Shown piece by piece: positions 714 to 20,307 of a stretch of DNA of 54,061 nucleotides (its first letter is position 1; the number at the start of each line of letters is the position of its first letter). The notes beneath the pieces are model-generated. The model was not told where the DNA came from, did not search any database, and saw nothing but the letters and a program-made list of their open reading frames with translations. The stretch is from Nitrospirota bacterium (GTDB taxonomy: Bacteria; Nitrospirota; Thermodesulfovibrionia; Thermodesulfovibrionales; Dissulfurispiraceae): assembly GCA_004321915.1 (NCBI GenBank), contig SCQE01000062.1, forward strand, positions 1-54,061, in the 5' to 3' direction. A program made the position numbers and the translations under genes.

Positions 714-1098
714 TTACTCCCCAGTATTAACTCTTAGGTTGTAGTTAACTATAACCTGGATTGAGGAGTTATTCTTCAAATAGTCTTTGAGATCGGTATG
801 AAGCTGTCTTGCATTTGCGCAACTAACTCCAATACAGCCTTCTGTGCCGATGGGAGGTTCATCAGGATGAATCCGAAGGTCATCTCTATCGGTATTAAAA
901 TCAGGATCTAGGTCAAGGCTCCATCCGCTATTGGGGCATTTCATTCCCTTTTTAGTCCTCTTACGAAGATTTTTGCCAGTATAAGTTCCTTCTGGCAGCT
1001 TGCCCTTACCAAACGGTCCTGATATAGATGGGTATTCTTTTGTCGGAACCCCCTGATTATTGAGCCAGTAGAGGCCTTTGCCATTAAAAAGTAAACTG
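714..1098 (-). other. Toxin module of the RHS protein (DUF2778/Tlde1-like)
   Basis: This is the region encoding the 127 residues after the DPLGL boundary of the RHS core. Features shared with the DUF2778/Tlde1 group are an FNGKGLYW start, SGPFGKGKLPEGTY in the middle, and a histidine codon at 867-869 followed by the cysteine codon at 834-836 in TEGCIG. The family is known to exchange or cleave D-amino acids on peptidoglycan tetrapeptides in the periplasm. Assignment rests on motif order only; overall identity may be low. Confidence 0.6.
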
Positions 1099-4000
1099 TC
1101 CAACCCCAAAGGATCAATCAAGTTCACGGGATCCGCTTCCACGTAATTGAATAGATTTATTCCACCCGCAAAATCTATCGGATCCTTCGCTGTCCATCTG
1201 CCGATTGAGGGATCGTAATCTCTTGCGCCGAAGCGGACGAGGTTTGTGTCTCTGTCGTGCAGGCTGCCTGCAAAGCCAAGCGGGACGGCAAACGACGGGT
1301 TGCTGTCGCTGGTGATATTGCCAAATGAGTCATAGTCGATGCGCTTGACAACATTGCCAGTTGTATCCGTCACCACACGGAGAGACCCCACCTGATCATA
1401 GGCAAAGTAGTAAGTTTGTCCGTTATGTGTCATCGAAACAGGCATCCTGTCATCGGCGTAGTTGAATCTGGTTTTCAGGTTGTCGTTGGCATCGAATATT
1501 GCAAGTAACGTTATGGCGTCAGCCCATAGGTATTTCTCGGTGATTGCGCCGTTGACTCGTTTTGCGACTCTTCTGCCTGTTGCATCGTGGTCATAAGATA
1601 CAGTTGTTCCGCCCGGCAGCAATGCGTCGAGCAGTTCGCCGTGTGTTGAGTAGTTGAATGTAGTTGTTCCTGTTGATGTTGTCTTGCTCATCAGGTAGCC
1701 GTCTGCGTTGTACTGGTAGCTGTCAGTTCCGGCCGTTATCAGATGGTCTTCGGCTGAATAGACGTATGAGCGCCTGCCGTCGGTCATTCTGTTTCCATCG
1801 GCATCGTAAGTATAGCTTTCGGTCGTGAGTCCGTTGTTTTTGACTGATATAAGCCGTCCCATTTGATCGTAGGCATAATCCCATGTGATTGTCGCGCCGC
1901 CTACTGTCTCGGTCTTCTGCGTTATCCTCCCTCCGTTGTCCCTACTGCTTACTTGATAAGCGAAAGGGGTACTGCCGTTCACCATGTACGCACTGCCGTC
2001 CAGTTCTCCATATCCGCTGAATGCTCTGGTGTTGGTCATTGCTCCGTCTGTTATTGATTCCGGCAATCCGTTCTGCTGATTCCTGTTGATTGTGAAGGTT
2101 CCGGCTGTTGTGAGAAGGCCATCATTGTCGTAGCTCAGTGTCTGTGTTATTCCGGCATAGCTCATCGTTGTAAGCCTGAAGTCATTGTTGTAAGCGTAGC
2201 TGATGGTCTGGTTTATGGTTCCTGTTCTTGAGTCTGTTTTTAAGAGTGTGCCGTCGTAGGTGAAGGTGTTCTTTTCCGTTCCTCTGGTTATTGCGGCTAT
2301 GTTGTCCCCGCAGTCGTAGGTGTAGGTTGTTGTTCCTTCAGGCGTTGTTGTGTTTGTCAGCAGGCCGTTGGTGTATGTGTTTGTGATTAGTCTGCCTGTT
2401 GGGAGTGTTACTGTTTTGAGTTTCCTTTCTTTGTCGTAGGTGTACTGATAGCTGCCGGATATCGGCGCTGTGTAAGCCTTTCTCTGGTCGTTGGCTGTGT
2501 ATCCGAAGGTGTGGTTTGTGTTCTGCGGGTTGGTCAGTATGGTCATGTTGCCGTTGGGGTCGTATGTGTAGGCTATGGCTGTACCGTCGGGTCTGATGGT
2601 TTGCCTTATTCTGCCCATGAGGTCGTAGCTGTAGGTTGTTGTCTTTCCGTCAGGGCTGGTTATGGTTGCTATGTTGCCGTTCTGGTCGTAAGCTATTGCG
2701 GTTGTCCTGCTGCCTGTTGTTACGGCTGTCAGTCTGCCCCTCAGGTCATGGGTGTAGGTTGTGGGGTTGAGGTTCGGGATGGTCTTTGTCTGGGTGAGCA
2801 GGGTCATGGGGTCGTATGTTTGTGTGGTTGTCCTGCCCAATGGGCTGGTGGTTGTGACCGTTCCTGTTATGGTGTCGTTGGTGTTGATCCAGTTTCTGTT
2901 GTTTATGGTTATTGTGTCTGTGATAATATCCGCTACTTTGTCGCTGTTGATGTCCTGATAGGTCTTTGCCGTCAGGCCTGTCTGTATAAGTCCCTGCGGG
3001 GTTACGGCTGTTGTCTGTTTGAGGTATCTCTGTTTGTACTGTGTGTCAAGGTCGTATTGCTTTGTCTGTTTGGTGCCGCAGGAGGGTTCTACTGTTTCCT
3101 GCATGTTGTCTGTTGAGCGTCTGATGAGTGTTATTCTGCCTGTGGGGTCTGTCTGTATGGATGCGTACCCGGTGCTTGTGTTGTTGTCTGTGTAGGCTGT
3201 GATATTGCCTTCGGCTGTGGTCTCGGTTGTGTGGATTGTTCCTGTGTTGTCCACTGTTCTGGCATAGCTCCAGCTTCCGCCTTCCGGGTCATAGACGTTG
3301 GTGATCCTTCCGCTGGCATCGTATGTGTGTCTGTATCTGTCGCCCCTTGGTTTGGTTTCGTCTGTCATCAGGCCGTCTGCTGTGTAGCTGAAGGCGTAGT
3401 TTGTTCCGTCCGGGTTGGTTACTTTGGTCAATTGGCCGTTTGTGTTGATGGTCAGTCCTGTTGTTATGCCGTCGGGTGATGTGATGTATGTCGGATTGCC
3501 GCTGCCGTCTCTTTGTATGGTTGTTGTGTTGCCGAACCGGTCGGTGACGGAGCTTAGCTTTCTGTTTGTGTCGTAGCCGAAGGTAAGTAGTGTCTTTCCG
3601 GTTGCAAGGTCAATCGTAGATTTGTGCAAGCCGACGCTGTCCATAATATATCCGAGACCATTTTCGTCGGAGAATGTAGTGTCTCCCGCTGATGTTAAAC
3701 CCTTAATAGCAGAAGGGTAAGAGACCTTTCTTATGCGCTTATTCCAGTAATCAACAATATAAATATTCCCTGCGCTGTCAACCACCACGCTCCTTGGAAA
3801 ATTAAGACTTGCCTGAGCAGCAGGTCCTCCATCGCCGCTAAAGCCCCATTGTCCATTGCCTGCTGCTGTTGTAATAATGCCGTTTGCATCTACCTTTCTT
3901 ATTCGTCCGCTTCCAGAATCTGCTATGTAAAGATTCCCTACACTGTCAACTGCCACGCTCCTTGGAGAACCAAGACTTGCCTGAGCAGCAGGTCCCCCAT

Positions 4001-7000
4001 CTCCGCTAAAGTCCCATTGTCCATTGCCTGCTGCTGTTGTAATAATGCCGTTTGCATCCACTTTTCTTATTCGGTGATTCCCGTAATCAGCAATATAGAT
4101 ATTCCCTGCGTTGTCCACTTCTAGTCCAATTGGATAATTAAGACTTGCCTGAGCAGCAGATCCTCCATCGCCGCTAAAGCCCGCTTGTCCATTGCCTGCT
4201 GCTGTTGTAATAATGCCGTTTGCATTTACCTTTCTTATGCGATTATTAGATGAATCAGCAATATAGATATTCCCTGCATTGTCCACTTCTAGTCCAACTG
4301 GATAATTAAGACTTGCCTGAGCAGCAGGTCCTCCATCGCCGCTAAAGCCCCATTGTCCATTGCCTGCTGCTGTTGTAATAATGCCGCTTGTATCCACCTT
4401 TCTTATGCGATTATTCCCGTAATCAGCAATATAAATATTCCCTGCGCTGTCTACCGCCACGCTCCTTGGAGAATCAAGACTTGCCTGAGCAGCAGGTCCT
4501 CCATCGCCGCTAAAATCTTCTTGTCCATTGCCTGCTACTGTGGTAATAATGCCGCTTGTATCCACCTTTCTTATGCGATTATTCCCGTAATCAGCAATAT
4601 AAATATTCCCTGCGCTGTCTGCTGCCACTCCATATGGACGACGAAGACTCGCCTGAGCAGCAGGTCCTCCATCGCCGCTAAAGCCCCATTGTCCATTGCC
4701 TGCTGCTGTTGTAATAACTAAGGCATTATTTTTGCTCTTAGCGCCATCTCCTTTATAGAGGGTGTTAGGATATGAAGGATTCAGGTAATGATGATTAGAG
4801 ATTGTCCAGCCATTGCCAAAGGCAGCAGCAATACCTTCCCCTCTCTCAACAATCAAGACGCTTCTTTTCCATGAGATCGCTTCCTGTCTTGCCTGAATTC
4901 TTGTAACGTCCGAGCCTGCCTGAGCAAAGGCCTGAGCAAAATTCCCTGCCGAATAATAAACTGCCTGATACACAAACCCTATGCTTATATTTGCATTCCT
5001 CGAACCGGAAACCAGATTTCCGAGATAATCGAGGCCATCCCATACAAATTCACCCTTTTGATTCGGCAAGGGATTCAGCGTTGTCTCAAATGTCCTGCCT
5101 GCAAGCTCCATTTTAACGATAATGCTCTTAAGGCTTGGGGGAACAGCTGCTCCGCTTGCTGGAATGGTTATGACTGTTTTATAGCCTTTAACTCTGTTAC
5201 TTGTATAATGAAGGGTCAAGTCCGTGCCCGTAATTGGAATGTCTTCATGAAATATTCTGCTTCTGTGTTCGACAAATGAATTGGTTTGTGTGCATTTGTC
5301 GCAGTCAGGCGGTAGCTGGCTGTCGCCGATCGGCTCGCTTGTAGGATTCGGCATTGTGGAATCGGGCGGCGGACCAAACGGCCAGTTAAAGTCCCAAGGT
5401 GTGAAATGGCTTATCTTTACGCGCATGTATGTTGCGCCGGGTATGTATTTGGTCGGGTCGTTCAGTCCGCTTGCTTCGTCGTTGTAAAGGCCGTTAGCGT
5501 TTAAGTCGTCGGGCAGTCCGTCTCCGTTTGAGTCGACGGCGTCTACTATGCCGTCTCCATTGGTATCCAGAAGCTTAACGATTACGCCGTCTTCTTCAGC
5601 CACCCATACCGCCCTCTCACGGTCGTAATAGCCTACAGGCACTTTCGTTCCGACGTTAAAGCCCAAGAAGTTGTCCACATAGGTTACTACGGGTTTGTCG
5701 AATCTTACGCTCTGTGTATTGTCGGCAGCAAACTCAGCGCAGTAGGTGTATGCAGATGTCGGAGGCAGTTTTGCGGGCATGGATTGCAGGGTGTCGAATT
5801 CGGTGACTCTGGTAGTGATAGTCGTTGCTAATGTCTCGTTGCCGTTTGCGTCTTTGATGTATGCCTTGTTGTCGCCGGTAAAGACCATCGTGGCAGAGCG
5901 GCTGCCGTATTGGTCAGAAGTTACCGAGCTTTTATGGGTGATTACTGTGGATGGGTTGCCGTCAAAGGTCACTGTGGTTGCAATCGGGTCTTCGGTCAGC
6001 ATTGTTACAGGTTCGGCTATGTCTATATTGTTCCATGAGGAGTTGACCTGTCTGTGGCTGGTGATGTATCCAACCTTCTTGTAAACGAATGTAAGCGCTC
6101 CGCCGCCTTCAACCGGTATCGAGAATCTGCCGTTGCCGTCTGTTGAGGCTGTTCCGTATTCGGGATGGCTGTGGACAGATACTGCTACGCCTGATAATGG
6201 GTTGTTGGTCCTGTCTGTAACCGTGCCGGTTACGATCGTAAATCTCTTCGGGTCGTAGGCTTTGATGGTTGCGTCTGCGGGTATGAGGTCTTCGTATTGT
6301 TTTCCAAAAGCGCCTTCGGGCAATGGTTCTACATTGCTCTTTTTGGTTACTGTGAAGCTTATTGGCGTCGATACGCCTCCGCCGGGCGCGGGGTTGGTTA
6401 TGCTTATCTGATAACTGCCTGCGGTTGTCATCATTGCAGCGGGGATTAAGGCTTCGAGTGTGCTGCTGTTGATATATCTTGCAGTGATTTGTTGGTTATT
6501 GGAGCTTATGGTCGAGGTTTTTACGAAATTACTACCTGTCAGTGTTACCGTTATATCAGCGCCTCCGGCTTTTACGGATGCCGGACTTATGGATGACAGT
6601 ATCGGTGCAGGATTGAAAACTGTGAGCGTTATGGGATTAGATGTTCCTCCGCCGGGCGCGGGGTTTGCCGCTGTTATCTGAAGGTAGCCGCCTGTTTCAA
6701 GATCGGTTGCCGTAAGTTCTATTTGAAGTTTGGTTGAATTGATGAGGGTGAAGGGTTTCTGTATTCCGTTTATATAAACCGTGGTGTCTTCAAAGAATCC
6801 GCTGCCGGTTGCCGTAAGTATAAGACCTGATCCGCCTGCTGTTGTTTCTGCAGGGTCTATGGATGTGATTTGAGGTACAGGGTTGACGACACTTAGTTCG
6901 ACGATGTTGGATGCGCCTCCTTCGGGTGAAGGGTTGATGACGGTTATTCTATAGATTCCTGTTTGTTTGAGGAGCGAGGCAGGAATGTCTGTTTCGAGTA

Positions 7001-8258
7001 TATGGTTGCTGAAAAAGGTTGTTGGGAGCGTGTACGATGCGCCTGATGTGGTTTGGAGTATGACGGTCGATGTCTTTATGAATTTCGAGCCGGTTATCCT
7101 TACTTTGGCTGTTTCGCTTCCTCTCGATAGGATTGCGGGGCTGACAGAACCTATGATAGGCGCGGGGTTGGGTAACTGGATGAGTTTGAGGCTTCTGGTT
7201 TGTTCGTCGGCTATTGCAGCGATATTGGTGTATGGGTTGATCGCTAAGGCTTCGGGTTCTTTGGTTAGGTCATAGGTTTGTACGATTGCGTTAGTGTCCA
7301 AGTCTACGAGCATGAGGCTTCTGTCTTCTTCGCATATGACTACGGCCCGGTTGTCGAGCGGGTTGATGGCTACCGCTTTAGGGTGTTTGCCGATTTGGAT
7401 GGTTTGAGTCTGTAAGGTGTTGAGGTTTATGACCGTGAGAGTTTTGTCTTCTTTGTTGGCGACTGCGGCTGTGTGCGTATCTGGGTTGATTGAGATAGAT
7501 TGAGCGCCCCTGCCGACAGGGATTGTTCCTGTGATCCTGTTTGTGTTTAGGTCGAGGACAAGGACAAAGCCTCCTTTGTCGTCTTTGTTTGTGTCTTTTG
7601 TGTTCTTGATGTCTTTATCCGAATGTCTCCGGTATTTAGTTCGGTCTTTATTCCTATCGTCGTCATCTTCTTTTTGTGCGGTCAGGAGCAAAGCTATGTT
7701 AAGCTGCGAATCTACGGCCATGCCTTTGATGCCTCTGCCTGTTGCAGCGGTACCGATAAGTTTGTAATTCGCAAGGTCTATTATCGATATTGTTCCATCT
7801 TTGCCGCTGCCGGCTATCAAGGCCGTGTGGTTGGTTTCGTTGATCGCTATGCTTTCGGGTTTCTTTCCGACCGGGATTGTTGCGGATACGGTGTTTGCGT
7901 TCAGGTCTACGAGCGAGACCGAACCCTTATGCTTATTTACGACCGCCGCTATGTTGAGGCCGCTGTCTATCGCAACGGCAACAGGCTCTTTGCCTGCCGC
8001 TATTGTCGCGATTACCGTCTGCGTGTTCAGGTTGATTATGGAGGCTGTGCCGCGCCCGTCTTCTTCTTCTTTGCCGCCTACGATTACCGCAACATTGGTT
8101 TCGGGGTTGAGCGCTACTGCTTCCGGCTCGAAGCTGAGGGGGATGCCGGTGTATAACCCGCTGACCTGAGAATGTCCCAAGCCCTGAAAGACTGCCGCGA
8201 TCAGACAAACTGCAAAAAAAGAAAATACTACGCCTTTGAATAATCTATTGCTCCTCAC
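714..8258 (-). CDS. Giant secreted RHS-repeat protein with C-terminal L,D-transpeptidase-like toxin domain
   Basis: About 2514 residues. I start it at the GTG at 8258, which has an AGGGGAGG ribosome-binding site and runs straight into a signal peptide (residues about 5-30); an upstream in-frame TTG has no such site. Domains in order, approximate residues: YVTN-type beta-propeller 41-354; three IPT/TIG domains 370-640; carboxypeptidase-regulatory-like domain 675-733; calcium-binding DxNGDG repeats 893-927; six 56-residue NHL repeats 1182-1515; YD/RHS repeats 1553-2303; RHS core with the ARDYDPSIGRW and DPLGL motifs 2340-2387; variable C-terminus 2388-2514. The C-terminus resembles DUF2778/Tlde1 L,D-transpeptidase effectors, with an RIHP histidine (residue 2464) followed by TEGCIGV (Cys 2475). 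RHS shells normally encapsulate a toxin and cleave it off after DPLGL. A Sec signal peptide and no T6SS signature suggest surface display or secretion. Confidence 0.9.
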   Translation of the reverse strand: MRSNRLFKGVVFSFFAVCLIAAVFQGLGHSQVSGLYTGIPLSFEPEAVALNPETNVAVIVGGKEEEDGRGTASIINLNTQTVIATIAAGKEPVAVAIDSGLNIAAVVNKHKGSVSLVDLNANTVSATIPVGKKPESIAINETNHTALIAGSGKDGTISIIDLANYKLIGTAATGRGIKGMAVDSQLNIALLLTAQKEDDDDRNKDRTKYRRHSDKDIKNTKDTNKDDKGGFVLVLDLNTNRITGTIPVGRGAQSISINPDTHTAAVANKEDKTLTVINLNTLQTQTIQIGKHPKAVAINPLDNRAVVICEEDRSLMLVDLDTNAIVQTYDLTKEPEALAINPYTNIAAIADEQTRSLKLIQLPNPAPIIGSVSPAILSRGSETAKVRITGSKFIKTSTVILQTTSGASYTLPTTFFSNHILETDIPASLLKQTGIYRITVINPSPEGGASNIVELSVVNPVPQITSIDPAETTAGGSGLILTATGSGFFEDTTVYINGIQKPFTLINSTKLQIELTATDLETGGYLQITAANPAPGGGTSNPITLTVFNPAPILSSISPASVKAGGADITVTLTGSNFVKTSTISSNNQQITARYINSSTLEALIPAAMMTTAGSYQISITNPAPGGGVSTPISFTVTKKSNVEPLPEGAFGKQYEDLIPADATIKAYDPKRFTIVTGTVTDRTNNPLSGVAVSVHSHPEYGTASTDGNGRFSIPVEGGGALTFVYKKVGYITSHRQVNSSWNNIDIAEPVTMLTEDPIATTVTFDGNPSTVITHKSSVTSDQYGSRSATMVFTGDNKAYIKDANGNETLATTITTRVTEFDTLQSMPAKLPPTSAYTYCAEFAADNTQSVRFDKPVVTYVDNFLGFNVGTKVPVGYYDRERAVWVAEEDGVIVKLLDTNGDGIVDAVDSNGDGLPDDLNANGLYNDEASGLNDPTKYIPGATYMRVKISHFTPWDFNWPFGPPPDSTMPNPTSEPIGDSQLPPDCDKCTQTNSFVEHRSRIFHEDIPITGTDLTLHYTSNRVKGYKTVITIPASGAAVPPSLKSIIVKMELAGRTFETTLNPLPNQKGEFVWDGLDYLGNLVSGSRNANISIGFVYQAVYYSAGNFAQAFAQAGSDVTRIQARQEAISWKRSVLIVERGEGIAAAFGNGWTISNHHYLNPSYPNTLYKGDGAKSKNNALVITTAAGNGQWGFSGDGGPAAQASLRRPYGVAADSAGNIYIADYGNNRIRKVDTSGIITTVAGNGQEDFSGDGGPAAQASLDSPRSVAVDSAGNIYIADYGNNRIRKVDTSGIITTAAGNGQWGFSGDGGPAAQASLNYPVGLEVDNAGNIYIADSSNNRIRKVNANGIITTAAGNGQAGFSGDGGSAAQASLNYPIGLEVDNAGNIYIADYGNHRIRKVDANGIITTAAGNGQWDFSGDGGPAAQASLGSPRSVAVDSVGNLYIADSGSGRIRKVDANGIITTAAGNGQWGFSGDGGPAAQASLNFPRSVVVDSAGNIYIVDYWNKRIRKVSYPSAIKGLTSAGDTTFSDENGLGYIMDSVGLHKSTIDLATGKTLLTFGYDTNRKLSSVTDRFGNTTTIQRDGSGNPTYITSPDGITTGLTINTNGQLTKVTNPDGTNYAFSYTADGLMTDETKPRGDRYRHTYDASGRITNVYDPEGGSWSYARTVDNTGTIHTTETTAEGNITAYTDNNTSTGYASIQTDPTGRITLIRRSTDNMQETVEPSCGTKQTKQYDLDTQYKQRYLKQTTAVTPQGLIQTGLTAKTYQDINSDKVADIITDTITINNRNWINTNDTITGTVTTTSPLGRTTTQTYDPMTLLTQTKTIPNLNPTTYTHDLRGRLTAVTTGSRTTAIAYDQNGNIATITSPDGKTTTYSYDLMGRIRQTIRPDGTAIAYTYDPNGNMTILTNPQNTNHTFGYTANDQRKAYTAPISGSYQYTYDKERKLKTVTLPTGRLITNTYTNGLLTNTTTPEGTTTYTYDCGDNIAAITRGTEKNTFTYDGTLLKTDSRTGTINQTISYAYNNDFRLTTMSYAGITQTLSYDNDGLLTTAGTFTINRNQQNGLPESITDGAMTNTRAFSGYGELDGSAYMVNGSTPFAYQVSSRDNGGRITQKTETVGGATITWDYAYDQMGRLISVKNNGLTTESYTYDADGNRMTDGRRSYVYSAEDHLITAGTDSYQYNADGYLMSKTTSTGTTTFNYSTHGELLDALLPGGTTVSYDHDATGRRVAKRVNGAITEKYLWADAITLLAIFDANDNLKTRFNYADDRMPVSMTHNGQTYYFAYDQVGSLRVVTDTTGNVVKRIDYDSFGNITSDSNPSFAVPLGFAGSLHDRDTNLVRFGARDYDPSIGRWTAKDPIDFAGGINLFNYVEADPVNLIDPLGLDSLLFNGKGLYWLNNQGVPTKEYPSISGPFGKGKLPEGTYTGKNLRKRTKKGMKCPNSGWSLDLDPDFNTDRDDLRIHPDEPPIGTEGCIGVSCANARQLHTDLKDYLKNNSSIQVIVNYNLRVNTGE
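3715..4716 (-). repeat. Six tandem 168-bp repeats encoding NHL propeller blades
   Basis: A block inside the RHS gene is repeated with an exact period of 168 bp (56 codons). The shared string GTCCATTGCC occurs at 3851, 4019, 4187, 4355, 4523 and 4691. Each unit encodes the pattern GNGQ..FSGDGG..AQASL followed by NIYIAD..NNRIRKV, an NHL blade. Six blades make one closed propeller. High identity between units points to recent duplication or gene conversion. Confidence 0.92.
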
Positions 8259-8371
8259 TTTGCCTCCCCTAAAAGTGCAGATGTATAGACCAATGAGGTT
8301 GAGATTACCTAAAGCCGTCCGGAAAATCAACCCTCAGTCCGTTTCTGCGGATTTGCTGTTCGTTTTATATA

Positions 8372-8549: not shown

Positions 8550-9881
8550 CTATCGCTTTTTGAAGAGCGCCCTTTTTATGCCTTGCAGGTCTTCCTTTTT
8601 GATAATGAGCATCTCGCTCAGTCTGACCCCGGATAATGAAGTGAATTTCCAAAGGAGTATCCCTGCCGCAAGGGTGTACGCAATCGATGAACTCAGCGCC
8701 GCGCCGTTTATGCCCATTACCGGTATGAGCATAAAGTTTAAGCCTACATTGCAGGCCAGAGTCATTCCGGCCTCAAAAGAAACGAAGCCCGGATGTCCGT
8801 GTCCGTAAAGCTCCGACTTCAGCACCTCGTGGATGCTCCACATTACTATGCCGGGAAGGAGCCAAAGAAGCGGTGGAATGGCGGGCAGAAATTTCGATCC
8901 GAAAAGGATTTGGACCGCAAGACCGCTGAACAGCACGCTTAGAATGCAGAGCAAAAGCATGAAAAAAAAGAGCACACGTGTAACGACCGGCGTAACGGAT
9001 TTAGCCTCTTTCTTTTCGAGTCCGAGCCTGATAGGGAGGAAAGGAATGTTTACTGCATCGGGTACGGCCAAGATTATCTCGGCCATAGAAACGCTTATGG
9101 CGTAATATCCGAGAGGCTCTGCGCCGAGCATGGACGATACTATGAGAACATCTATCCTCTTTACGAATACGCCTGCCAAGGTGCTGCCCATAATTTTTAT
9201 GCCGTAGGAAAGCGTTTCTTTGAAATAGTCGAACGAAAGCCCCAAACGGTAATTGCAAAGCGCCGAGACCCTCAAGACCGCCCCCAAACCAAAAATAATC
9301 ACCGAGGAACCCCAAGCGTACATTGCGGATTGCAGGGCCTTTCCTGTGAGCAGATATAAAACTATCAGGGCCAGAATAGGAAATGTGGAAAACACCATCT
9401 TCATGGTGTTCAGAAATTTGATCTCCTGAACGGCGAGAAGCAGGTCTTCTCCGAACCTCTGCAGCAACACGAAAGGGACCATAAAAAGGACTATCGGGGC
9501 GAGGGCGCTTATAGTGGCCGCATCTCCTTTGAGTATGCCCTCGTATGAGAGAAGAACATAGCCGACCGCGACCATCACCGCACCGAGCAGCACCGAGGCC
9601 ATGATTGTATTGCCGATGAGTTTTCCGAGGTCGTACTTCTTTTTTGCGGCAAGATACATGGTACCCATTCCGAGCCCTAAGTCTCCCGAGCATACGATAA
9701 GGTCCGGAATGGTTGTAAGCAGTCCGAACACGCCCCTTTCGGCAGGACCGAGCAGCCGGGTGAATACGCTGTTTTTGATTATCCTGCTGCCGAACCGGAG
9801 GAGTGTGACGGTCATTGTAAGGACCGAAAATGAGGCGAGTTTTTTCAGTGAAGAGTCTGTCTTGCCGGGGTCTCCTTCCAT
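8550..9881 (-). CDS. Polysaccharide flippase (Wzx/MurJ-MATE superfamily)
   Basis: About 443 residues with some 12 or more hydrophobic segments, typical in size and layout of polysaccharide biosynthesis flippases that move lipid-linked oligosaccharide units across the inner membrane. The N-terminal LLGPAERGVFGLL segment is characteristic of the family. I prefer the ATG at 9881, which follows the glycosyltransferase stop after one base; a GTG at 9920 would add 13 residues with no better ribosome-binding site. It is the third gene of a tight minus-strand set: deacetylase, glycosyltransferase, flippase. The context says it exports the glycan assembled with these partners. The substrate cannot be read from the sequence. 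Confidence 0.85.
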   Translation of the reverse strand: MEGDPGKTDSSLKKLASFSVLTMTVTLLRFGSRIIKNSVFTRLLGPAERGVFGLLTTIPDLIVCSGDLGLGMGTMYLAAKKKYDLGKLIGNTIMASVLLGAVMVAVGYVLLSYEGILKGDAATISALAPIVLFMVPFVLLQRFGEDLLLAVQEIKFLNTMKMVFSTFPILALIVLYLLTGKALQSAMYAWGSSVIIFGLGAVLRVSALCNYRLGLSFDYFKETLSYGIKIMGSTLAGVFVKRIDVLIVSSMLGAEPLGYYAISVSMAEIILAVPDAVNIPFLPIRLGLEKKEAKSVTPVVTRVLFFFMLLLCILSVLFSGLAVQILFGSKFLPAIPPLLWLLPGIVMWSIHEVLKSELYGHGHPGFVSFEAGMTLACNVGLNFMLIPVMGINGAALSSSIAYTLAAGILLWKFTSLSGVRLSEMLIIKKEDLQGIKRALFKKR

Positions 9882-9882
9882 G

Positions 9883-10851
9883 CTATCTGACAAAGCCCCC
9901 CTTGCCCGAGATGATATCACGAATGCCGGTCAATAAGCCTTTGAGATGATCGAGAGTCTTTTGTTTGCCCGAAAACATGAAGCCTACGGCGTTTGACAGC
10001 ACTAACCCGATGACCGCATACCAGAAAAATATAGCGCTTAAAGGCCCTTTTTTAACATGCCTTGTGAAAAACAGGTAACAGAAATTTATATACATCAGCC
10101 CCATCTTGAAATTGTCCGGCTTCATAATCGGAGATTCCATATGAAGCAGCCGGGCTTTGGGGTTCAGCACCAATGTGCGGGTTTTCGACACTTGGTAGCT
10201 GAACTCTTTGTCCTCTCCGAGCGAGTAGTTTTGAAAGCGGCCCGCATCGAAGGAGAATCGGGCAAAGATCTCTTTTTTAAAAGAGCTGACCCCGGCAGGA
10301 AGAAAATCAACAACAGCTTCCTGAGTGTATGGCGTTCCGGTTGAACCGTAGTTCGTGGTAAAACCGGACGGCAATACCTTGCCTTCCTTGTTGCCTGATA
10401 TCAGGAATACCGCCTCAAGTGTGTGCCTCAGTTTTTTGTTTCTGCTCAACGGTTTGGTGTTTGCCACGATGCCGCCTACGCCGCCAATGTCCTCGTATCT
10501 GTTTTCAGTGTAAACGCGGAGTATCTCTTCGATGTAGTCAGGGTATAAAATCACATCGTCGTCGAGGAAGAGGACTATATCTCCGCCTGCAAGCCCTGCG
10601 CCTATGTTCTTTGATGCTGCGGAACCGCGCTCCCCCTGCTTCTTGAAATATACGCATTTGATTCCTGCATCTTCGCATTCTTTACGGAGCGGGACATCGG
10701 CGAGGTTGCCGTCGTCGACTACAATGATTTCATAAGGCCTGACCGTCTGTTTGAGTATGGACTCTATGCAATTCCTGAGGTCGTCGGGCCTGTTGTATGT
10801 CGGAATGACGATAGATGCTCTCAGCTTTTCTGTATTCTGACTGTCGGTCAT
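9883..10851 (-). CDS. GT2 family glycosyltransferase
   Basis: 322 residues. The N-terminal GT-A fold shows the typical start SIVIPTYNRPDDLRNCI, the nucleotide-binding VVDDG and the metal-binding DDD motif in LFLDDDVILYP at about residue 95-105. Two hydrophobic segments near the C-terminus (about 245-285) suggest membrane association. It should add a sugar from a nucleotide donor to a lipid-linked acceptor at the cytoplasmic face; donor and linkage are unknown. Its ATG lies 2 bp after the deacetylase stop, and its TAG is one base before the flippase start, so the three form an operon. Confidence 0.9.
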   Translation of the reverse strand: MTDSQNTEKLRASIVIPTYNRPDDLRNCIESILKQTVRPYEIIVVDDGNLADVPLRKECEDAGIKCVYFKKQGERGSAASKNIGAGLAGGDIVLFLDDDVILYPDYIEEILRVYTENRYEDIGGVGGIVANTKPLSRNKKLRHTLEAVFLISGNKEGKVLPSGFTTNYGSTGTPYTQEAVVDFLPAGVSSFKKEIFARFSFDAGRFQNYSLGEDKEFSYQVSKTRTLVLNPKARLLHMESPIMKPDNFKMGLMYINFCYLFFTRHVKKGPLSAIFFWYAVIGLVLSNAVGFMFSGKQKTLDHLKGLLTGIRDIISGKGGFVR

Positions 10852-10853
10852 TT

Positions 10854-11837
10854 TTAGCGTTTTCCGCTTACAAGTGGTTTCAGCTTTTTCAACAGCGGCA
10901 TGTTACCCGCGAAGGTCCTGTTTATGTAGAGCATTATACGGTCGGCGGTGAAATTGTGCAATGGAATGCGGGGGAACAGAAAATTTTGGCGCTGAGAATC
11001 TCCGGCGGTAAAATTGGCTATGGAAGTTGTATAGACGCTTTTATGTCCGGCGGCAAAAACCTGCCGCACAACATCTTCGGTATAGTGCTGTTTTTTTCCG
11101 AACGGAAAGGCAAAGTGCTTTATCTCCGTTCCAAACAGTCTCTCGAGATATGCCTTGTTCCCTGAAATCTGGCGTTCGGCTTCGGCCTGTTCGCAACGCG
11201 ACATCACATAGTGGTCGCAGGTATGGCTTCCCATCAACACCCCTTCTTCAGCAAGAAAATTCAAATCGTTTTCATCCATATAAAGCTTTTCACGGGGAGG
11301 ACCGGTCAAACAGACATCCCTGAACCCCTCGTCGAAAACAGAGTGGTCTCTCAATGAGGAAACGGGATCGGAAATGTAATGCCCGAAATCCACCTTGCCG
11401 GCAAGGGAGTATTCATATATTTTTTCCATATATTTCCTGTCGGTTTTATTAAGCTCGATATTCGAAACCCAGAGCTGGTTCAGCGTAACGGCCGTCTTGC
11501 TCGCAAAGACCGCAAAAGGCAGTTTTTCTTTTTTGAGCAAAGGGTAGGCGTTTTTCAGCACAGAGTAAAAGCCGTCGTCGAACGATATGCTTGCGCAAGG
11601 TCTTTTTCCGGGCATTTCGTTTTGGATCATAAGTTCGTCGAGCGGCAAGATCGTGAATTTTCGCTTTAACAGCAGGACCGCTTCTTCGAAATTTCGGGTC
11701 GAGGTGGAATAATGTTCCGAGTAATGCGTATCCCCGGGGTCTGATATGTCATGGAAAACGAAAATAAATCGTCTATTATTTGAGAACCGAAGGAAATAAT
11801 CTACCGATAAAAGACGTGAGACGATTTTTTTTATAAT
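10854..11837 (-). CDS. Polysaccharide deacetylase (NodB-like), apparent ATT or ATA start
   Basis: NodB-homology carbohydrate esterase expected to remove N-acetyl groups from an exported glycan. Motifs are SISFDDGF (catalytic and metal aspartates) and GSHTCDHYVMS (metal histidines). The shortest version with an accepted start codon is a TTG at 11648, but the same open frame continues upstream through a family-typical N-terminus (FVFHDISDPGDTHYSEHYS, then an FEEAVLLLKRKF helix) back to a stop near 11870. That segment contains no ATG, GTG or TTG. A very strong ribosome-binding site (GGGGGAGGGGG) ends just before ATT (11837-11835) and ATA (11834-11832), followed by KKIVSRLLS. I therefore place the start at ATT, giving about 327 residues, normal for the family. 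A mutated ATG (ATA) or sequencing error is the alternative. Confidence 0.72.
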   Translation of the reverse strand: MIKKIVSRLLSVDYFLRFSNNRRFIFVFHDISDPGDTHYSEHYSTSTRNFEEAVLLLKRKFTILPLDELMIQNEMPGKRPCASISFDDGFYSVLKNAYPLLKKEKLPFAVFASKTAVTLNQLWVSNIELNKTDRKYMEKIYEYSLAGKVDFGHYISDPVSSLRDHSVFDEGFRDVCLTGPPREKLYMDENDLNFLAEEGVLMGSHTCDHYVMSRCEQAEAERQISGNKAYLERLFGTEIKHFAFPFGKKQHYTEDVVRQVFAAGHKSVYTTSIANFTAGDSQRQNFLFPRIPLHNFTADRIMLYINRTFAGNMPLLKKLKPLVSGKR

Positions 11838-11938
11838 TCCCCCTCCCCCTCTTTCTTTGGGTGCGTTTTAAGCCTTAACTATTCTACTGCTAAGGGTTTT
11901 TCCGGTCAATCTGTTTTTCCGTTCTTCTTTTGTCTTCG

Positions 11939-11968
11939 TTGAGATTATAAAAAAAACTAAGTTAAAAT
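11939..11968 (+). promoter_or_regulatory. Candidate sigma-70 promoter for the binding-protein gene
   Basis: TTGAGA at 11939-11944 and TAAAAT at 11963-11968 are separated by 18 bp in an AT-rich stretch, about 40 bp upstream of the ATG at 12007, which has a GGGAGGGG ribosome-binding site. Each hexamer deviates from consensus by one or two bases. Confidence 0.42.
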
Positions 11969-12006
11969 AATGTGTTAATTAAAAAAATTAATCGCGGGAG
12001 GGGAAG

Positions 12007-13308
12007 ATGAAAAAGGCGTGGGGATTTTTTTCTTTTTTTCTGTCTGTTTTTTTGTTCGGATCGGTGGTCGGTTCTTTTGGGGCGGACGCGGGTATCGTAA
12101 AAATAGGGCTGAACCATCCGGAGACCGGGCCTTACGCAAAACAAGGCCTTGATCAGCGCCGTGCAGCCGATCTGGCGGTCGAAGAAATCAATGCTGCGGG
12201 CGGGATTCTGGGCAAGAAGGTACAGTTAGTATACCGCGACACTAAATCCAACGCCAAAGTAGCCAAAGAAAACGCCATAGAGCTTTATGACAAGGAAGGC
12301 GTTCCTATGATCTTCGGCGGTTCTTCGAGCGCGGTTGCCATAGCCACAGGCAAGGTGGCGCTGCAGAAGAACAAAATCTTTTTCGGTACTCTCACCTATT
12401 CCACAGAGACAACGGGAGAGGAAGGCCACAGGCATATTTTCAGGGAGTGCTACGACTCTTATATGGCAGCAAAAGTCGTATCGGATTATATAACCAAGAC
12501 TATGGCTGCGACACTTCAGGGCTTGGCCCCGAAGTTTTTTTATATTACGGCTGACTACACTTGGGGCTGGACCACAGAGGATTCTATCCGGAAGTTTACC
12601 GGCACAACCGATAAGAACGAACATAGGGGCGTTTTGACAAGGCTCGGCTCTGATGATTTTTCAAAGGTTTTGGGAATAGCGAAAGAGGCCAAGGCCGATG
12701 TGCTTGTGCTTGTGCTTTTCGGACGCGACATGGAGATAGCGGCAAAGCAGGCTTACGAGACGGGGCTGAAAAAAACAATGCAGCTAATAGTGCCGAACCT
12801 CACTCTCGATATGGCTGAAGGCGCCGGTCCCGAGGCCATGGAAGGCGTTATAGGAGCTATGCCTTGGACATGGCGTCTGCCTTTTGCCGACAACTACGGC
12901 AAGGGCATCGAATTTGTAAAAAAATTCGAGGAAAAACACAAGCGTTATCCTTCAACCTCCGGCGCATCTGCTTATGTTATCCTTCACCAATACAAAGAGG
13001 CGGTCGAACGGGCCAAGACCTTTGACACAAAGGCTGTGATAAAGACGTTGGAGGGCCATAAATATACCGGCCTGAAGGATGAACAGTACTGGCGCGCATG
13101 GGACCATCAGTCCGTACAGACGGTTTATGCGGTGAAATGCAAACCTGCGGCCGAAGTTAAAAAAGACAAGTATCAGCAGGACTATTTCGAGATAGTAAAC
13201 AGCATGAACGGCGAAACAGCCGCGATAAGCAGCAAGGAGTGGAGCGAAAACAGGACAAGGGTCGGAATGCCGACATCGCTGGAGGAGCATTTGGAAGCCG
13301 GGCAGTGA
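12007..13308 (+). CDS. Periplasmic substrate-binding protein (Peripla_BP_6, branched-chain amino acid/urea type)
   Basis: 433 residues. A Sec signal peptide spans about 1-26, with cleavage after FGA. The mature part starts with the family-typical IVKIGLNHPETGPYAKQG, then AADLAVEEINAAGGILGKKVQLVYRD and an FGGSSSAVAIATGKV ligand-binding loop. It is a class I periplasmic binding fold as in the amino-acid, amide and urea ABC systems. No permease or ATPase gene is nearby. The next gene, 49 bp downstream, is a chemoreceptor. This arrangement suggests a sensory role, presenting a ligand to the receptor, rather than transport. The ligand is not predictable. It is flanked by polysaccharide genes on both sides. 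Confidence 0.9.
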   Translation: MKKAWGFFSFFLSVFLFGSVVGSFGADAGIVKIGLNHPETGPYAKQGLDQRRAADLAVEEINAAGGILGKKVQLVYRDTKSNAKVAKENAIELYDKEGVPMIFGGSSSAVAIATGKVALQKNKIFFGTLTYSTETTGEEGHRHIFRECYDSYMAAKVVSDYITKTMAATLQGLAPKFFYITADYTWGWTTEDSIRKFTGTTDKNEHRGVLTRLGSDDFSKVLGIAKEAKADVLVLVLFGRDMEIAAKQAYETGLKKTMQLIVPNLTLDMAEGAGPEAMEGVIGAMPWTWRLPFADNYGKGIEFVKKFEEKHKRYPSTSGASAYVILHQYKEAVERAKTFDTKAVIKTLEGHKYTGLKDEQYWRAWDHQSVQTVYAVKCKPAAEVKKDKYQQDYFEIVNSMNGETAAISSKEWSENRTRVGMPTSLEEHLEAGQ

Positions 13309-13357
13309 TCAAGCATTGCTTTAAAAAAATAATCCGGGGACAAAAAGGGGAAGACTG

Positions 13358-15823
13358 ATGAATATAGGGAAAAAGCTCACTCTAAATGCGGGTGTGGCGC
13401 TGATGCTTATGATTTCCATCGGGGCGGCGGCGGTGCTCGGCATTATATATATTGAGCGGGGTGTAACTGAGTTAACACAAAAATCCACGCCTTATCAGAT
13501 AGCTGTTTTCAACCATCAGGGCGCTATGCAGACCCATGCGGCAAACCTTCTAAAGACAGCCTCTTCGGAGTCTATGGACGAATTCAAGAAGAATGCCGTC
13601 GAGGTGCTCGAATCCGAAAAGGAACAGGTAAGGGCCTCGCAGGAGGTCATGAATCTGGGCGGCAAGAAGGATGAAGGCGACGCGCAGATTGCAGAAATAA
13701 CCAAAAATCTGCTTGAGGCAACAGAAAAGAGGATTGCCCTGCAGAAGGCCATGTCCGCATCGATAGATTCGATGAGAAAGAAGCTGGGCGAGGCCTCCGG
13801 CAAATTGAAGATGCTTGACGATACGGTCCAGAGTCTTCAGCAGGGCGCAACAAAGAGCATGATCTCCAATATAGACAAGTCCGCAAGCACTAACGCCAAC
13901 TCCAACAATCTTGTTTTGGTAAGAGAAGGGTTCAAGGACCTGACGCTTTATGCTACAAGATTCCCATCGATAAACGACCGCAAGACGATTGTTGACACAA
14001 AGGAAATGTTCGAGGGTGTTGCGGCCAAGATTATGCAGGCGGTAAAGAGCATAAGCTGGCAGGAGAAGACGGCGGGTGATGAACTTTATCAGAGGATGAA
14101 GGACCTGTCCGGCAAAATGACCGGCGCTTTCAACCTTAAGCTGAAGTATTTGAAAGAAGAGGACGAAGCGCTCAGGACTAGGGCGGAGAGGATAGCCAAA
14201 GACACGGAATACGAGCTTACTTACCTGATGCCGGCTGTCCTGCAAGAGTTCCAGAAGGCCAATGCGCAGCAGAAGATGAGCGTAAGGGACATGTCAAAGA
14301 GCGTAGGCTCTTTTACCGGAACTAACGAGATTTTGCTTGCATCCTCTACTCTTATGACCATGACCTCTTCGATAGAATCGAACATAAGCTACAGTTTTTC
14401 ACTCAAAACCCTGAACGAGTTTGAAAGATCTGTTGGAATAATACAGAAGATGTTCGATGATGCCATGAAAACCCATAAGAAGCTGCACGCGGTCACCGCA
14501 AACTATTCGGACGCAAATAAATTATGCAGCGCGTCTTCCGAAACCCTCATGTCGGTGCAGAGAGAGTTTCTCGGCAAGGGCGGGACCGCCGAAAATATAA
14601 GGGCCTCTCTTAAAACTCTCGAGCTGGTTTCAGGTCTCAACCTAAAGATGAAAAACATAATAGCGCAGGAAATTCAGGAGACCGCAAAAGATATAACAGA
14701 AGCAAAGAAGAAGCAGGAAGTTTCGGTCGGAAACGTAAGATCTGCCGTTAGTATAACCATAAAAATCATAATTGGGGTGGCGGCAATAGCTCTGGTATGC
14801 TCTATTTTGTTCAGCAGGTGGATAGCGCTTTCGGTAGTGCTTCCGATCGGGGAGCTGGCCTGTTTGGCAGAGGGTTTTCGCCTAGGCAACTTCAACATGA
14901 AACTGAACGAACAGAGGAAGGACGAATTCGGCAGGCTCGCCGGACACTTTAATACTGCGGTGGGGAAAATACATGAGATAATCGGGAACCTCACAGGCAC
15001 AATAGAACGAATGTCCAACAGCGCTACGGAACTTGCCGACACTTCGGCAGAGCTTTACCGGGTGTCGCAGGAACAGACGGAACATACCGAACAGTCGGTG
15101 ACCGCTACGACACAGATAGAACAGACCGTCAGCAGCGTAGCGAAAAACGCCGACGATGCTTCCAGCGCATCCAAGGAGGCGTTGGACAGGGCGGCAAGCG
15201 GCAAGGAAATAGTTGCCAAGACCGTCAAGAAAATGGAGATAATAGCCGATTCTGTAAGGGACGCTGCTTCTAATATAACGAGACTGAGCGAAAGTTCGGA
15301 AAAGATAGGCCTGATCGTAAAGACCATTAACGAGATCGCGGACCAGACCAACCTTTTGGCGCTGAACGCCGCCATTGAAGCGGCGCGGGCGGGAGAGCAG
15401 GGCAGGGGTTTTGCGGTAGTCGCCGATGAGGTAAGAAAGCTCGCCGAACGCACGAGCGAATCCACAAAAGAGATCGGCGCGATCATAAACGAGATACATG
15501 AAGACACGAAGCGTTCGGTCAGCGCGATGGAGGGCAGCAAAGGCGATGTCGAAGAAGGGGTGAAGTTTGCGAGTGATGCAAGCCGTTCCCTTGAAGAGAT
15601 AGTGAGCGCCTCCACGCGCGGCGTCGATATGGCCCATATGATAGCTTCTGCAACAAGTCAGCAGGCCTCGGCAGCCGAGCATGTTTCGTTGAGCATGGAA
15701 AACATAAGGACAATAACCAAAAAGCTCGAGTCTGCGACCAAGACGATAGCAAAGGAGTCCAAGGACCTGTCTTCGCTTGCGGCCTTTCTAAAGGAGACAT
15801 CCTCATGGTTCAAGCTTAAATGA
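13358..15823 (+). CDS. Methyl-accepting chemotaxis protein with a large periplasmic sensor
   Basis: 821 residues: TM1 at about 9-32, an unusually long mostly helical periplasmic region 33-464, TM2 465-487, HAMP 489-541, and a cytoplasmic signalling coiled coil to the end. The hairpin tip with [23 protein letters not shown] (in two parts around residues 658-680) and the following [15 protein letters not shown] is the conserved CheA/CheW contact region. The start has an AAAAAGGGGAAG ribosome-binding site. No CheA, CheW or CheR/B gene is in the window, so it must signal to a system encoded elsewhere, possibly one controlling polysaccharide production given its neighbours. Confidence 0.95.
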
Positions 15824-15824
15824 C

Positions 15825-16868
15825 GTGAAACCCGAAGAAGCGATTCTGGCCCATATACGCGAAAAATGCGGGGACTATTTCCCGGACGAAGATTTTTCCA
15901 AAGCAGAAGCGGACCTTGTCCCCGCGCCTTTTCGCACCACAAATCCTGTCTATGTGGTTGAGGTACGTTCCGCATCGGGCCGCGCCCCGAAAAAAATCAT
16001 AGCCAAAGTCACTCCTGACGATGAGGCAACGCACGGCGGCCGGCCCGAATATGAGATGCTAAAACTTCTGTACGGCCATCCGCTTATGACCTCAAAAGGC
16101 TTTCATGTCCCTAAACCGATAGATTTTCTGCCCTCCCAGAAAACGCTTCTCTTGGAAATAATCGAAGGCGAAAAACTGGGCGCAATGATTAAAAGACAAA
16201 ACAGCATCACAGCTTCCACCGAAAACATACAGCGACTTGGGTCGCTTCTTAGGCGGTGCGGCGAATGTTTGCGTGCCATACATGATATCACGGCAAACGG
16301 TACGGCTAAGGGCGTCCCTGATGATTTACGGATCAAGGTGCGGGCATCGGTTGTTAAACTGACCTCCGACGGACTGCTGAGCGACAGCAGTTCCGCGGAA
16401 ATCCACTCGCTTACAGACCGGGCTTTGGAGCTTACGAAGGACAAAGAATTCAGGATTTCAAAACAGCACGGAGATTTTCACCCCGGCAATGTGATAGTCC
16501 AAAAGGACGGCATAGCTGTGATAGATTTCACCTTTGCAGAAGAGAATGTCATCTATAACGACATCGGACAGTTTCTGCTCAGCCTTGAAACCATAATCCC
16601 GTATCCCCGGAACTTTCTTTTCGCTTTCGGACGCTTGAAGGTTTTGCAAAGGCGTTTCCTTGAAGGGTATTTCGGGGAGTCCGCTTCTCCCGGAGAAGAT
16701 GAATGGCTGCTGCTCCACCTGTTCAAACTCAGAAACGCCTTGATACGCCTGAATGTCCGCCGCCACACTTATAAAAACCCGCAGCGGTCGGTATTCATTT
16801 TTATGATGAAGAGAAGTATCCAAAAAGAAATCGACCGCATTAAACAGTTAATAGGTCAATATGCCTGA
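15825..16868 (+). CDS. Phosphotransferase of the aminoglycoside/choline kinase family
   Basis: 347 residues with a protein-kinase-like fold. The catalytic loop KQHGDFHPGNVIV (about residue 213-225) and the metal-binding VIDFTFAEE are the Brenner motif and DFG-like site of APH-type small-molecule kinases. The GTG start at 15825 lies one base after the chemoreceptor TGA, so it is coupled to that gene; no strong ribosome-binding site is visible. The substrate is unknown. A sugar, choline-like or lipid-linked head group would fit the polysaccharide surroundings. Its 3' end overlaps the convergent deacetylase by 13 bp. Confidence 0.85.
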   Translation: MKPEEAILAHIREKCGDYFPDEDFSKAEADLVPAPFRTTNPVYVVEVRSASGRAPKKIIAKVTPDDEATHGGRPEYEMLKLLYGHPLMTSKGFHVPKPIDFLPSQKTLLLEIIEGEKLGAMIKRQNSITASTENIQRLGSLLRRCGECLRAIHDITANGTAKGVPDDLRIKVRASVVKLTSDGLLSDSSSAEIHSLTDRALELTKDKEFRISKQHGDFHPGNVIVQKDGIAVIDFTFAEENVIYNDIGQFLLSLETIIPYPRNFLFAFGRLKVLQRRFLEGYFGESASPGEDEWLLLHLFKLRNALIRLNVRRHTYKNPQRSVFIFMMKRSIQKEIDRIKQLIGQYA

Positions 16869-17845
16869 TTCCTTTGACGGAAGATACGATGCCATATTTT
16901 GGGGCAGGAACGGTCGGTTTCATAAAGCGCTATCCGATGAAGAAACCGGGCTGAAGGATTTACGTTGACAACCGGAAAAGACGAAAATATTTTTTTTGCC
17001 CCGTTTGCAAAAAGTATATCCATCTCTCTTTCATTAAAACAGGCGCCCGGCTGACCGAACGGAAACGCAAACAGCGGACGTGTGTTCGAATACGCGGCCA
17101 ACGCCTCCTCATTTTTCCGAAAAGACTCTATGAGCTCGCTGTCGCTCAACAGCAGCGCATTGTCGTGATTGTACAGGTGATTGCCGAAATAAATATTTTT
17201 AATTCCGGACGCGGCCTTAAGATCGTCTTCCGCCGCAAAGGGACCTATGAATGCGGAGACTTCCTCATCAAAAGAACGGCCTGAGGCATTCAAATAGGAA
17301 TGCACTATTTCACGCGAGCATGAAAGAAAAGGCGCTTTTTCGTTGAACCCGTTACCTGCCCGTTCTTTGAGGTAAGGGACAAAATCGTCTCTTTTTTCGC
17401 AAAGATAAGTTATCAGACCCGACCAGAAGACTTCACCTTTCACAGGGGCCATGTTCATGAAGATGATTACGGGCAGTTCGTGCTTTTCGAGCAACGGCAC
17501 TGCGTAAGTAAAAAAACCTTTAAGCCCGTCGTCGAATGTTATGAGCGCCGCCTTTGGCGGGACCTTTCCAGAAAGCAACTCATCCGGGCCTATTACATTG
17601 AACCTCTTTTTTATGAATTCCAGCTGGAATTCAAACACGCTTGGAGGGACATTAAGGCTGTAACGCCTGCTGGACTCTGCGGGTGAAGGCGAAACATCGT
17701 GATATACGAAAACAGTCAGTCCGGACCGCAAGCTGCCGCTCTTGATTATTCCGAGCGCAGCCCCGAGAATTGTGGTCTTGGCGCTTTTAAGGGCCTTCTT
17801 AAGCCTCGGATATTTTGATATATGCTGTTTAAGCCCCGCTATCAT
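16856..17845 (-). CDS. Polysaccharide deacetylase (NodB-like)
   Basis: About 329 residues. The start at ATG 17845 is chosen because GGAAGG lies 8 bases upstream; longer in-frame starts add 17 unlikely residues. The NodB-domain motifs are VFVYHDVS, LITFDDGLKGF (catalytic and metal Asp), FGNHLYNHDN (metal His) and FAFPFGQPG. It is expected to deacetylate an N-acetylated exported glycan, as PgaB- or IcaB-like enzymes do. This is the second deacetylase of the region, unlike the first in sequence apart from the shared motifs, and lies on the strand opposite its neighbours. Confidence 0.88.
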   Translation of the reverse strand: MIAGLKQHISKYPRLKKALKSAKTTILGAALGIIKSGSLRSGLTVFVYHDVSPSPAESSRRYSLNVPPSVFEFQLEFIKKRFNVIGPDELLSGKVPPKAALITFDDGLKGFFTYAVPLLEKHELPVIIFMNMAPVKGEVFWSGLITYLCEKRDDFVPYLKERAGNGFNEKAPFLSCSREIVHSYLNASGRSFDEEVSAFIGPFAAEDDLKAASGIKNIYFGNHLYNHDNALLLSDSELIESFRKNEEALAAYSNTRPLFAFPFGQPGACFNEREMDILFANGAKKIFSSFPVVNVNPSARFLHRIALYETDRSCPKIWHRIFRQRNQAY

Positions 17846-17981
17846 TATCGCTACCTTCCACCACGAATTATTGCAAATACGGACAAAGCAACGCAAATTT
17901 TATTCAGGAAAAGTTTTCCCGGACGGCAAAACTTTCCTAAAGCATATTCTCATTAATGATATCCCCTTTCCGCTACAACAT

Positions 17982-18150: not shown

Positions 18151-18196
18151 GTGCCTTTTTATCAATAAAACCTGTTGAAATCTAAAAACAAAAACT

Positions 18197-18212
18197 TGGC
18201 ATGGTTCTTGTA
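18197..18212 (+). promoter_or_regulatory. Candidate sigma-54 (-24/-12) promoter of the exopolysaccharide operon
   Basis: TGGCATG, four bases, TTGTA: the GG at 18198-18199 and the G at 18210 are 12 bp apart as required. It matches TGGCACG-N4-TTGCW except for T instead of C at two places. It is about 195 bp upstream of the first gene, with a repeated dyad cluster further upstream. Confidence 0.45.
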
Positions 18213-20298: not shown

Positions 20299-20307
20299 GG
20301 AGGTTTC

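What the first reader, a model, noticed from the sequence alone, without database searches (positions are those of the whole stretch)
714..1098. RHS protein ends in a predicted peptidoglycan-targeting L,D-transpeptidase toxin
The 127 residues after the DPLGL cleavage boundary carry the motif order of DUF2778/Tlde1 effectors, including RIHP and TEGCIGV with the catalytic His and Cys. Tlde1 proteins are known as T6SS-delivered enzymes. Here the domain ends a 2.5-kb-residue Sec-exported shell with YVTN, TIG and NHL domains and no VgrG/PAAR part, so the delivery route appears different.
Basis: partly seen in the sequence, partly recalled or inferred. Interest (0 to 1): 0.72.

Follow-up and report, generated by a model that had tools for sequence, protein, structure and literature searches.

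The report
Teneurin-like toxin with peptidoglycan-enzyme tip
A Nitrospirota bacterium encodes a giant exported protein, a bacterial relative of the animal brain receptor teneurin, that appears to carry a cell-wall-attacking enzyme in its shell, with a matching exported protector gene next door; the kind of toxin is known, but this pairing of shell, enzyme and phylum extends it.

Summary
The last 129 residues (window 717-1103, minus strand) of a 2514-aa Rhs protein form an L,D-transpeptidase (YkuD) fold. Pfam YkuD is above its cut-off, the AlphaFold2 model has pLDDT 91, and the best Foldseek PDB match is the T6SS effector Tlde1a. His2464 and Cys2475 are kept in 16 of 16 relatives. Formal Tlde1/DUF2778 membership is not met (16 bits against a cut-off of 30). 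It is a bacterial teneurin-like protein (TLP): residues 671-2385 align end to end with the solved Bacillus TLP at 1108 bits, and both self-cleavage sites are kept. TLPs were described in 2026 as polymorphic toxins with immunity genes, in six phyla that do not include Nitrospirota. The gene 4 nt downstream (152-709) is exported and tracks the tip. Relatives of the tip have unrelated downstream genes, all starting with an export-type hydrophobic segment, which points to action in the periplasm. The near-complete genome has no T6SS sheath gene. Rhs-linked L,D-peptidase toxins were predicted in 2012, so this is a new member of a known kind. Toxicity, enzymatic activity and delivery are untested.

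The parts
714..8258 (-). Teneurin-like Rhs polymorphic toxin, 2514 aa, GTG start with strong ribosome-binding site
8169..8258 (-). N-terminal Sec-type signal segment (residues 1-30), no lipobox
   Evidence: sequence; hydropathy
7170..8138 (-). YVTN/YncE-like beta-propeller repeats (about residues 41-363)
   Evidence: NCBIfam (TIGR02276, TIGR03866)
6348..7169 (-). three IPT/TIG-like repeats (NF058597 CoaZ_rpt_PGGG)
   Evidence: NCBIfam
6000..6254 (-). teneurin TTR-like domain
   Evidence: Pfam PF25020, 62.9 bits, cut-off 27
5304..5999 (-). TIP-like insertion between TTR and FN-plug, by position
   Evidence: aligned to BiTLP over this stretch; domain named in PMC13018210
4779..5303 (-). FN-plug with Cys989 and Ser994, aligned with BiTLP C719 and S724 (disulfide partner and plug cleavage site)
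   Evidence: alignment; PF24329 weak, below its cut-off; Ser kept in the five related shells where the motif was found
3708..4724 (-). teneurin NHL propeller
   Evidence: PF25021 181 bits and PF01436
1104..3707 (-). YD-shell ending in the Rhs autocleavage module (R2346, D2359, D2382, DPLG)
   Evidence: PF25023 145 bits, TIGR03696 77.9 bits; positions
714..1103 (-). C-terminal toxin: L,D-transpeptidase fold, His2464, Cys2475, probable disulfide Cys2441-Cys2480; includes stop codon
152..709 (-). cognate immunity candidate, 185 aa, exported; starts 4 nt after the toxin stop codon

Best explanation
The gene pair 714-8258 / 152-709 is an antibacterial polymorphic toxin and its immunity gene. The long protein is a bacterial teneurin-like protein. 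It is exported by Sec, folds into a YD-shell sealed by an FN-plug, and cuts itself after DPLG and probably in the plug, leaving a 129-aa tip enclosed in the shell. The tip is an L,D-transpeptidase-fold cysteine enzyme. Released into a target cell's periplasm or wall, it probably removes or exchanges the D-Ala4 of peptidoglycan stem peptides (L,D-carboxypeptidase/exchange chemistry, as in Tlde1a) and so weakens the wall. The exported downstream protein guards the producer's own periplasm by binding the tip. Shown by computation: fold, conserved catalytic pair, TLP shell identity, conserved cleavage residues, linked exported immunity candidate, absence of T6SS sheath genes. Inferred: toxicity, exact reaction, binding by the immunity protein, release. 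Unknown: how it crosses the outer membranes.
For: Tip: Pfam YkuD above cut-off; AF2 pLDDT 91.4, pTM 0.85; Foldseek top hit Tlde1a 7uma E 5.6e-4 with other LDTs next; VIA Z 13.5 to Bd1075, 13.4 to YkuD, 13.1 to Csd6, 12.2 to Tlde1a; His/Cys in 16/16, spacing 11-12. Shell: phmmer best PDB hits are the Bacillus teneurin-like protein (9ifo, 9pt5), 1108 bits, chain 398-2143 against query 6-1720. Polymorphism: same shell at 65-82% identity with other tips in relatives, and the same tip on other Rhs shells. Immunity: P0003 family adjacent to the tip in 4 loci; within 176 genomes its only strong hits lie beside the tip. Thirteen of 13 downstream proteins start with a hydrophobic segment against 9 of 37 neighbour genes, in at least three families with no detectable similarity. 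Delivery: no VipB and no phage sheath gene in the genome. Literature: TLPs are toxin-immunity pairs (PMC13018210); Rhs-linked L,D-peptidase toxins predicted (PMC3482391).
Against: No toxicity or enzyme assay exists for this tip. The second motif histidine of [S/T]HGC is replaced by variable residues (E/Q/L/A/N), which could alter activity. The tip (129 aa) is shorter than Tlde1a (172 aa), so the capping subdomain may be missing. No outer-membrane translocation route was identified. L,D-transpeptidase folds also serve ordinary wall remodelling. The immunity protein has no recognised fold or family.
Confidence: 0.78

Rival explanations
1. The tip is a housekeeping wall-remodelling or self-anchoring L,D-transpeptidase that attaches the giant protein to the producer's own peptidoglycan, not a toxin.
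For: Most YkuD domains are housekeeping enzymes (PMC3482391 section 18); the host protein is exported and large.
Against: The tip sits after an Rhs autocleavage module that should free it from the shell. Other genomes carry the same shell with unrelated tips. A linked exported gene follows, in several unrelated families. The tip occurs as displaced orphan modules with an immunity-like gene (L014, L015).
Confidence: 0.08
2. The tip is catalytically degenerate and acts, if at all, by binding peptidoglycan or precursors.
For: Loss of the [S/T]HGC histidine; short domain.
Against: His and Cys are invariant in 16/16 relatives across several phyla, with Arg2458 and the LRIHPD stretch.
Confidence: 0.06
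3. The protein is a T6SS or contractile-injection cargo like classical PAAR-Rhs/Tlde1 effectors.
For: Best solved fold match is a T6SS effector; tip relatives without a signal peptide exist in Myxococcota, fused to PG_binding_1.
Against: No VipB or phage sheath gene in the 99.58% complete genome; no PAAR/VgrG match; Sec-type N-terminus.
Confidence: 0.03
4. The main role is adhesion or signalling at the cell surface, as proposed as an alternative for TLPs, with the toxin secondary or lost.
For: Adhesion-type N-terminus (YVTN, TIG); PMC13018210 discussion leaves this open; the gene lies beside exopolysaccharide genes.
Against: Conserved active site and linked immunity candidate imply selection for toxin function.
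Confidence: 0.05

Closest known systems
Bacterial teneurin-like proteins (TLPs; Nat Commun 2026, PMC13018210), BiTLP 9ifo/9pt5
   Same: TTR, TIP-like insertion, FN-plug, NHL and YD-shell order; Rhs autocleavage; plug Cys and Ser; polymorphic C-terminal domain; downstream immunity gene; no obvious delivery machine
   Different: Nitrospirota, a phylum not among the six listed there; tip is an L,D-transpeptidase fold (the paper lists 'peptidases' without giving that fold in the main text); N-terminus lacks a lipobox
Tlde1a (T6SS effector, PMC9638812; Pfam PF10908)
   Same: L,D-transpeptidase fold used as toxin; short His-Cys spacing (11 here, 10 in Tlde1a); an Arg six residues before the His; periplasmic target
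   Different: below PF10908 cut-off; 129 versus 172 aa; no His two before the Cys; carried on a Sec-exported TLP, not T6SS
[quoted passage not shown] 2012, PMC3482391)
   Same: same kind: Rhs protein, L,D-peptidase tip, linked immunity gene
   Different: the section read gives no teneurin-type shell, no solved structure and no export pattern of the immunity proteins
Housekeeping L,D-carboxypeptidases and transpeptidases Bd1075, Csd6, Pgp2 and YkuD
   Same: fold (VIA Z 13 and above)
   Different: those are stand-alone remodelling enzymes with other domains

Membership tests
Bacterial teneurin-like protein (TLP) | FN-plug, NHL and YD-shell adjacent, in frame and in order | tested here: met
   phmmer against PDB: query 6-1720 to BiTLP 398-2143, 1108 bits; PF25021 and PF25023 above cut-off, PF24329 weak
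Bacterial teneurin-like protein (TLP) | Rhs autocleavage: PxxxxDPxG, two Asp, Arg 13 before the first Asp | tested here: met
   PVNLIDPLG; D2359, D2382, R2346, against BiTLP D2116, D2140, R2103
Bacterial teneurin-like protein (TLP) | TIP insertion between TTR and FN-plug | tested here: met
   about 230 residues at that place align with BiTLP
Bacterial teneurin-like protein (TLP) | small polymorphic C-terminal toxin with downstream immunity gene | tested here: met
   same shell with other tips in relatives; P0003. Toxicity itself not testable here
YkuD / L,D-transpeptidase fold | Pfam PF03734 above gathering score and fold match | tested here: met
   28.8 bits against 23.4; Foldseek and VIA
YkuD / L,D-transpeptidase fold | catalytic His and Cys conserved | tested here: met
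   16/16 relatives
YkuD / L,D-transpeptidase fold | full motif HXX14-17[S/T]HGC | tested here: not met
   spacing 11 and no His before GC; Tlde1a also has short spacing
Tlde1 / DUF2778 (PF10908) | Pfam gathering score | tested here: not met
   16.2 against 30.1 bits; best relative 22.8
Tlde1 / DUF2778 (PF10908) | T6SS delivery | tested here: not met
   no VipB in own genome
Tlde1 / DUF2778 (PF10908) | L,D-carboxypeptidase and D-amino-acid exchange activity | not testable with these tools
   needs enzyme assay
Rhs L,D-peptidase polymorphic toxin (2012) | Rhs repeats plus L,D-peptidase tip plus linked immunity gene | tested here: met
   definition

The most novel reading that the evidence does not exclude
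A Sec-exported teneurin-like shell, without any contractile injector, delivers a peptidoglycan enzyme from cell surface to neighbouring cell wall. Because its substrate lies outside the cytoplasm, it would need to cross at most outer membranes. The same tip on Sec-exported Rhs proteins in Pseudomonadota and Bacteroidota would make this a general surface-to-wall toxin route.
Probability: 0.35. Interest if true: 0.65.

Novelty: new member of a known kind. Interest (0 to 1): 0.45.

Why it matters
It extends teneurin-like toxins, the bacterial relatives of an animal neuronal receptor, to Nitrospirota, and gives one of them a predicted target: the wall. Where a TLP toxin acts and how it gets there is stated as open in the 2026 paper. 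A tip that needs only reach the periplasm, with immunity proteins that all appear exported, makes the question testable in the periplasm of laboratory E. coli.

Tried and rejected
Direct sequence search of the tip in PDB: only chance hits (designed trefoils with LRINPDG repeats). Foldseek for the immunity model: no match below E 0.07, so its fold is unassigned; no inference is drawn. P0003 in Pfam, NCBIfam and PADLOC: none. Plasmid records: no relative of the tip. Weak P0003 hit in G117 rejected: it lies inside a helicase-like ORF. Own genome: no second copy of the tip. TssC/VipB and phage sheath searched and absent; secretins present but not linked to this protein. Supplementary tables of the TLP paper could not be read, so whether its 'peptidase' tips include this fold is unknown.

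Full report
Observation. The long minus-strand ORF at 714-8330 is an Rhs protein. The window is a whole contig (C113) of a 3.63-Mb, 145-contig genome rated 99.58% complete.

The tip. Residues 2386-2514 match Pfam YkuD above its gathering score (28.8 against 23.4 bits) and Tlde1_dom below it (16.2 against 30.1). An alignment of 16 natural sequences gave an AlphaFold2 model with mean pLDDT 91.4 and pTM 0.85. Foldseek places Tlde1a from Salmonella (7uma) first in the PDB (E 5.6e-4, probability 1.00); the other nine confident hits are L,D-transpeptidases. VIA-align gives Z 13.5 for Bd1075, 13.4 for YkuD, 13.1 for Csd6 and Pgp2 and 12.2 for Tlde1a; differences of about 1 are near ties. His and Cys are present in all 16 sequences, 11-12 residues apart. 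Tlde1a has H121 and C131, 10 apart, whereas the classical motif quoted there has 14-17 residues between. Arg2458, six before the His, is invariant and corresponds in spacing to Tlde1a R115. The [S/T]HGC histidine is not kept (E, Q, L, A or N). Two further cysteines (2441, 2480) occur together in eight of the nine sequences that have either in this place, which suggests a disulfide; this was not measured.

The shell. Pfam finds teneurin TTR, NHL and YD-shell models above cut-off and FN-plug weakly. Compared by sequence with all PDB chains, residues 671-2385 hit the Bacillus teneurin-like protein (9ifo, 9pt5) with 1108 bits over its residues 398-2143, about three times the score of animal teneurins. 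In that alignment Cys989 and Ser994 stand opposite C719 and S724. In the paper (PMC13018210) these are the plug cysteine that is disulfide-bonded to the toxin and the residue at the plug self-cleavage site. The Ser is kept in the five related shells in which the motif was located. The DPxG cleavage module is present with D2359, D2382 and R2346 at nearly the BiTLP spacing (23 against 24 between the Asp; 13 from Arg to the first Asp). Before the TTR lie a Sec-type N-terminus without lipobox, YVTN-type propeller repeats and three TIG-like repeats. PMC13018210 reports TLPs in six phyla, Nitrospirota not among them. Here 10 of 176 genomes of the order carry the TTR-to-plug region at E <= 1e-20.

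Modularity. Close shells (82, 69 and 65% identical over TTR to plug) end in different tips (L041, L042, L045). The tip occurs on unrelated Rhs shells and as displaced orphan modules (L014, L015, L017, L020). In the Nitrospinota locus L014 the preceding Rhs gene ends in a true Tlde1_dom (45.2 bits), and the following module carries the tip studied here. In the loci with complete-looking hosts in Pseudomonadota (L016, L018) and Bacteroidota (L021), the host ORF begins with a hydrophobic export-type segment and has only Rhs or DUF6443 matches, no PAAR. In L016 and L018 this host is the second of two overlapping Rhs genes.

Immunity. The ORF at 152-709 starts 4 nt after the toxin stop (TAATAAAATG), has a signal-peptide-like start and no known family. 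Its relatives directly follow the tip in L013, L015 and L017 at 29-40% identity. Within the order its only strong hits are beside the tip. Other tips are followed by two further families (A5, A6) and one singleton. Profile comparison finds no similarity between the families. All 13 downstream proteins start with a hydrophobic segment, against 9 of 37 other genes of the window. Members of a family are not independent, so the fair count is about four of four families. The immunity model is confident (pLDDT 85) but matches no solved fold.

Mechanism. Shown by computation: fold, conserved catalytic pair, shell identity, cleavage residues, linked export of the partner, no T6SS or phage sheath gene in the genome. 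Inferred: the tip is released and attacks D-Ala4 of stem peptides like Tlde1a (activity described in PMC9638812), and the partner binds it in the producer's periplasm. A protein that folds in the periplasm after Sec export needs its guard there, which explains the exported immunity without any injector. Unknown: passage across the outer membranes. Three secretin genes exist, but nothing ties them to this protein.

Prior knowledge. Zhang et al. 2012 stated that L,D-peptidase domains occur in Rhs polymorphic toxins with linked immunity genes. Raoelijaona et al. 2026 established bacterial TLPs as toxin-immunity pairs with many tip folds, including unspecified peptidases, and no known delivery. 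The present case joins the two and adds a phylum. It is therefore a new member of a known kind, with a real open question about delivery.

Noticed in passing
L014 3-2243 (+): A Nitrospinota Rhs protein ends in a genuine Tlde1_dom (45.2 bits, above cut-off) with its own small exported neighbour, directly upstream of an orphan module with the tip of this report.
   Followed up: partly
L016 3928-8384 and L018 5104-8384 (+): In Roseateles and Rhizobacter the Rhs protein with this tip is split into two overlapping genes (ATGA), the second starting with its own export-type signal segment.
   Followed up: no
L024 1678-2340, L027 7722-8396 (+): Archangium proteins of about 220 aa fuse PG_binding_1 to a relative of the tip, without signal peptide and without a clear immunity gene.
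   Followed up: no
G000 contigs C20 and C62 (L005, L007, L008): The own genome holds further Rhs core fragments with different short tips, apparently displaced modules on short contigs.
   Followed up: partly
L042 and L045, C-terminal ends: Related TLP shells end in a glycine-rich tip (L042) and a cysteine-rich tip (L045), neither with a Pfam match.
   Followed up: partly
window 8550-22077: The TLP gene lies next to exopolysaccharide-type genes (flippase, glycosyltransferase, polysaccharide deacetylases, tyrosine kinase, Wza- and Wzc-like proteins, named by eye); a link to surface display is possible but untested.
   Followed up: no
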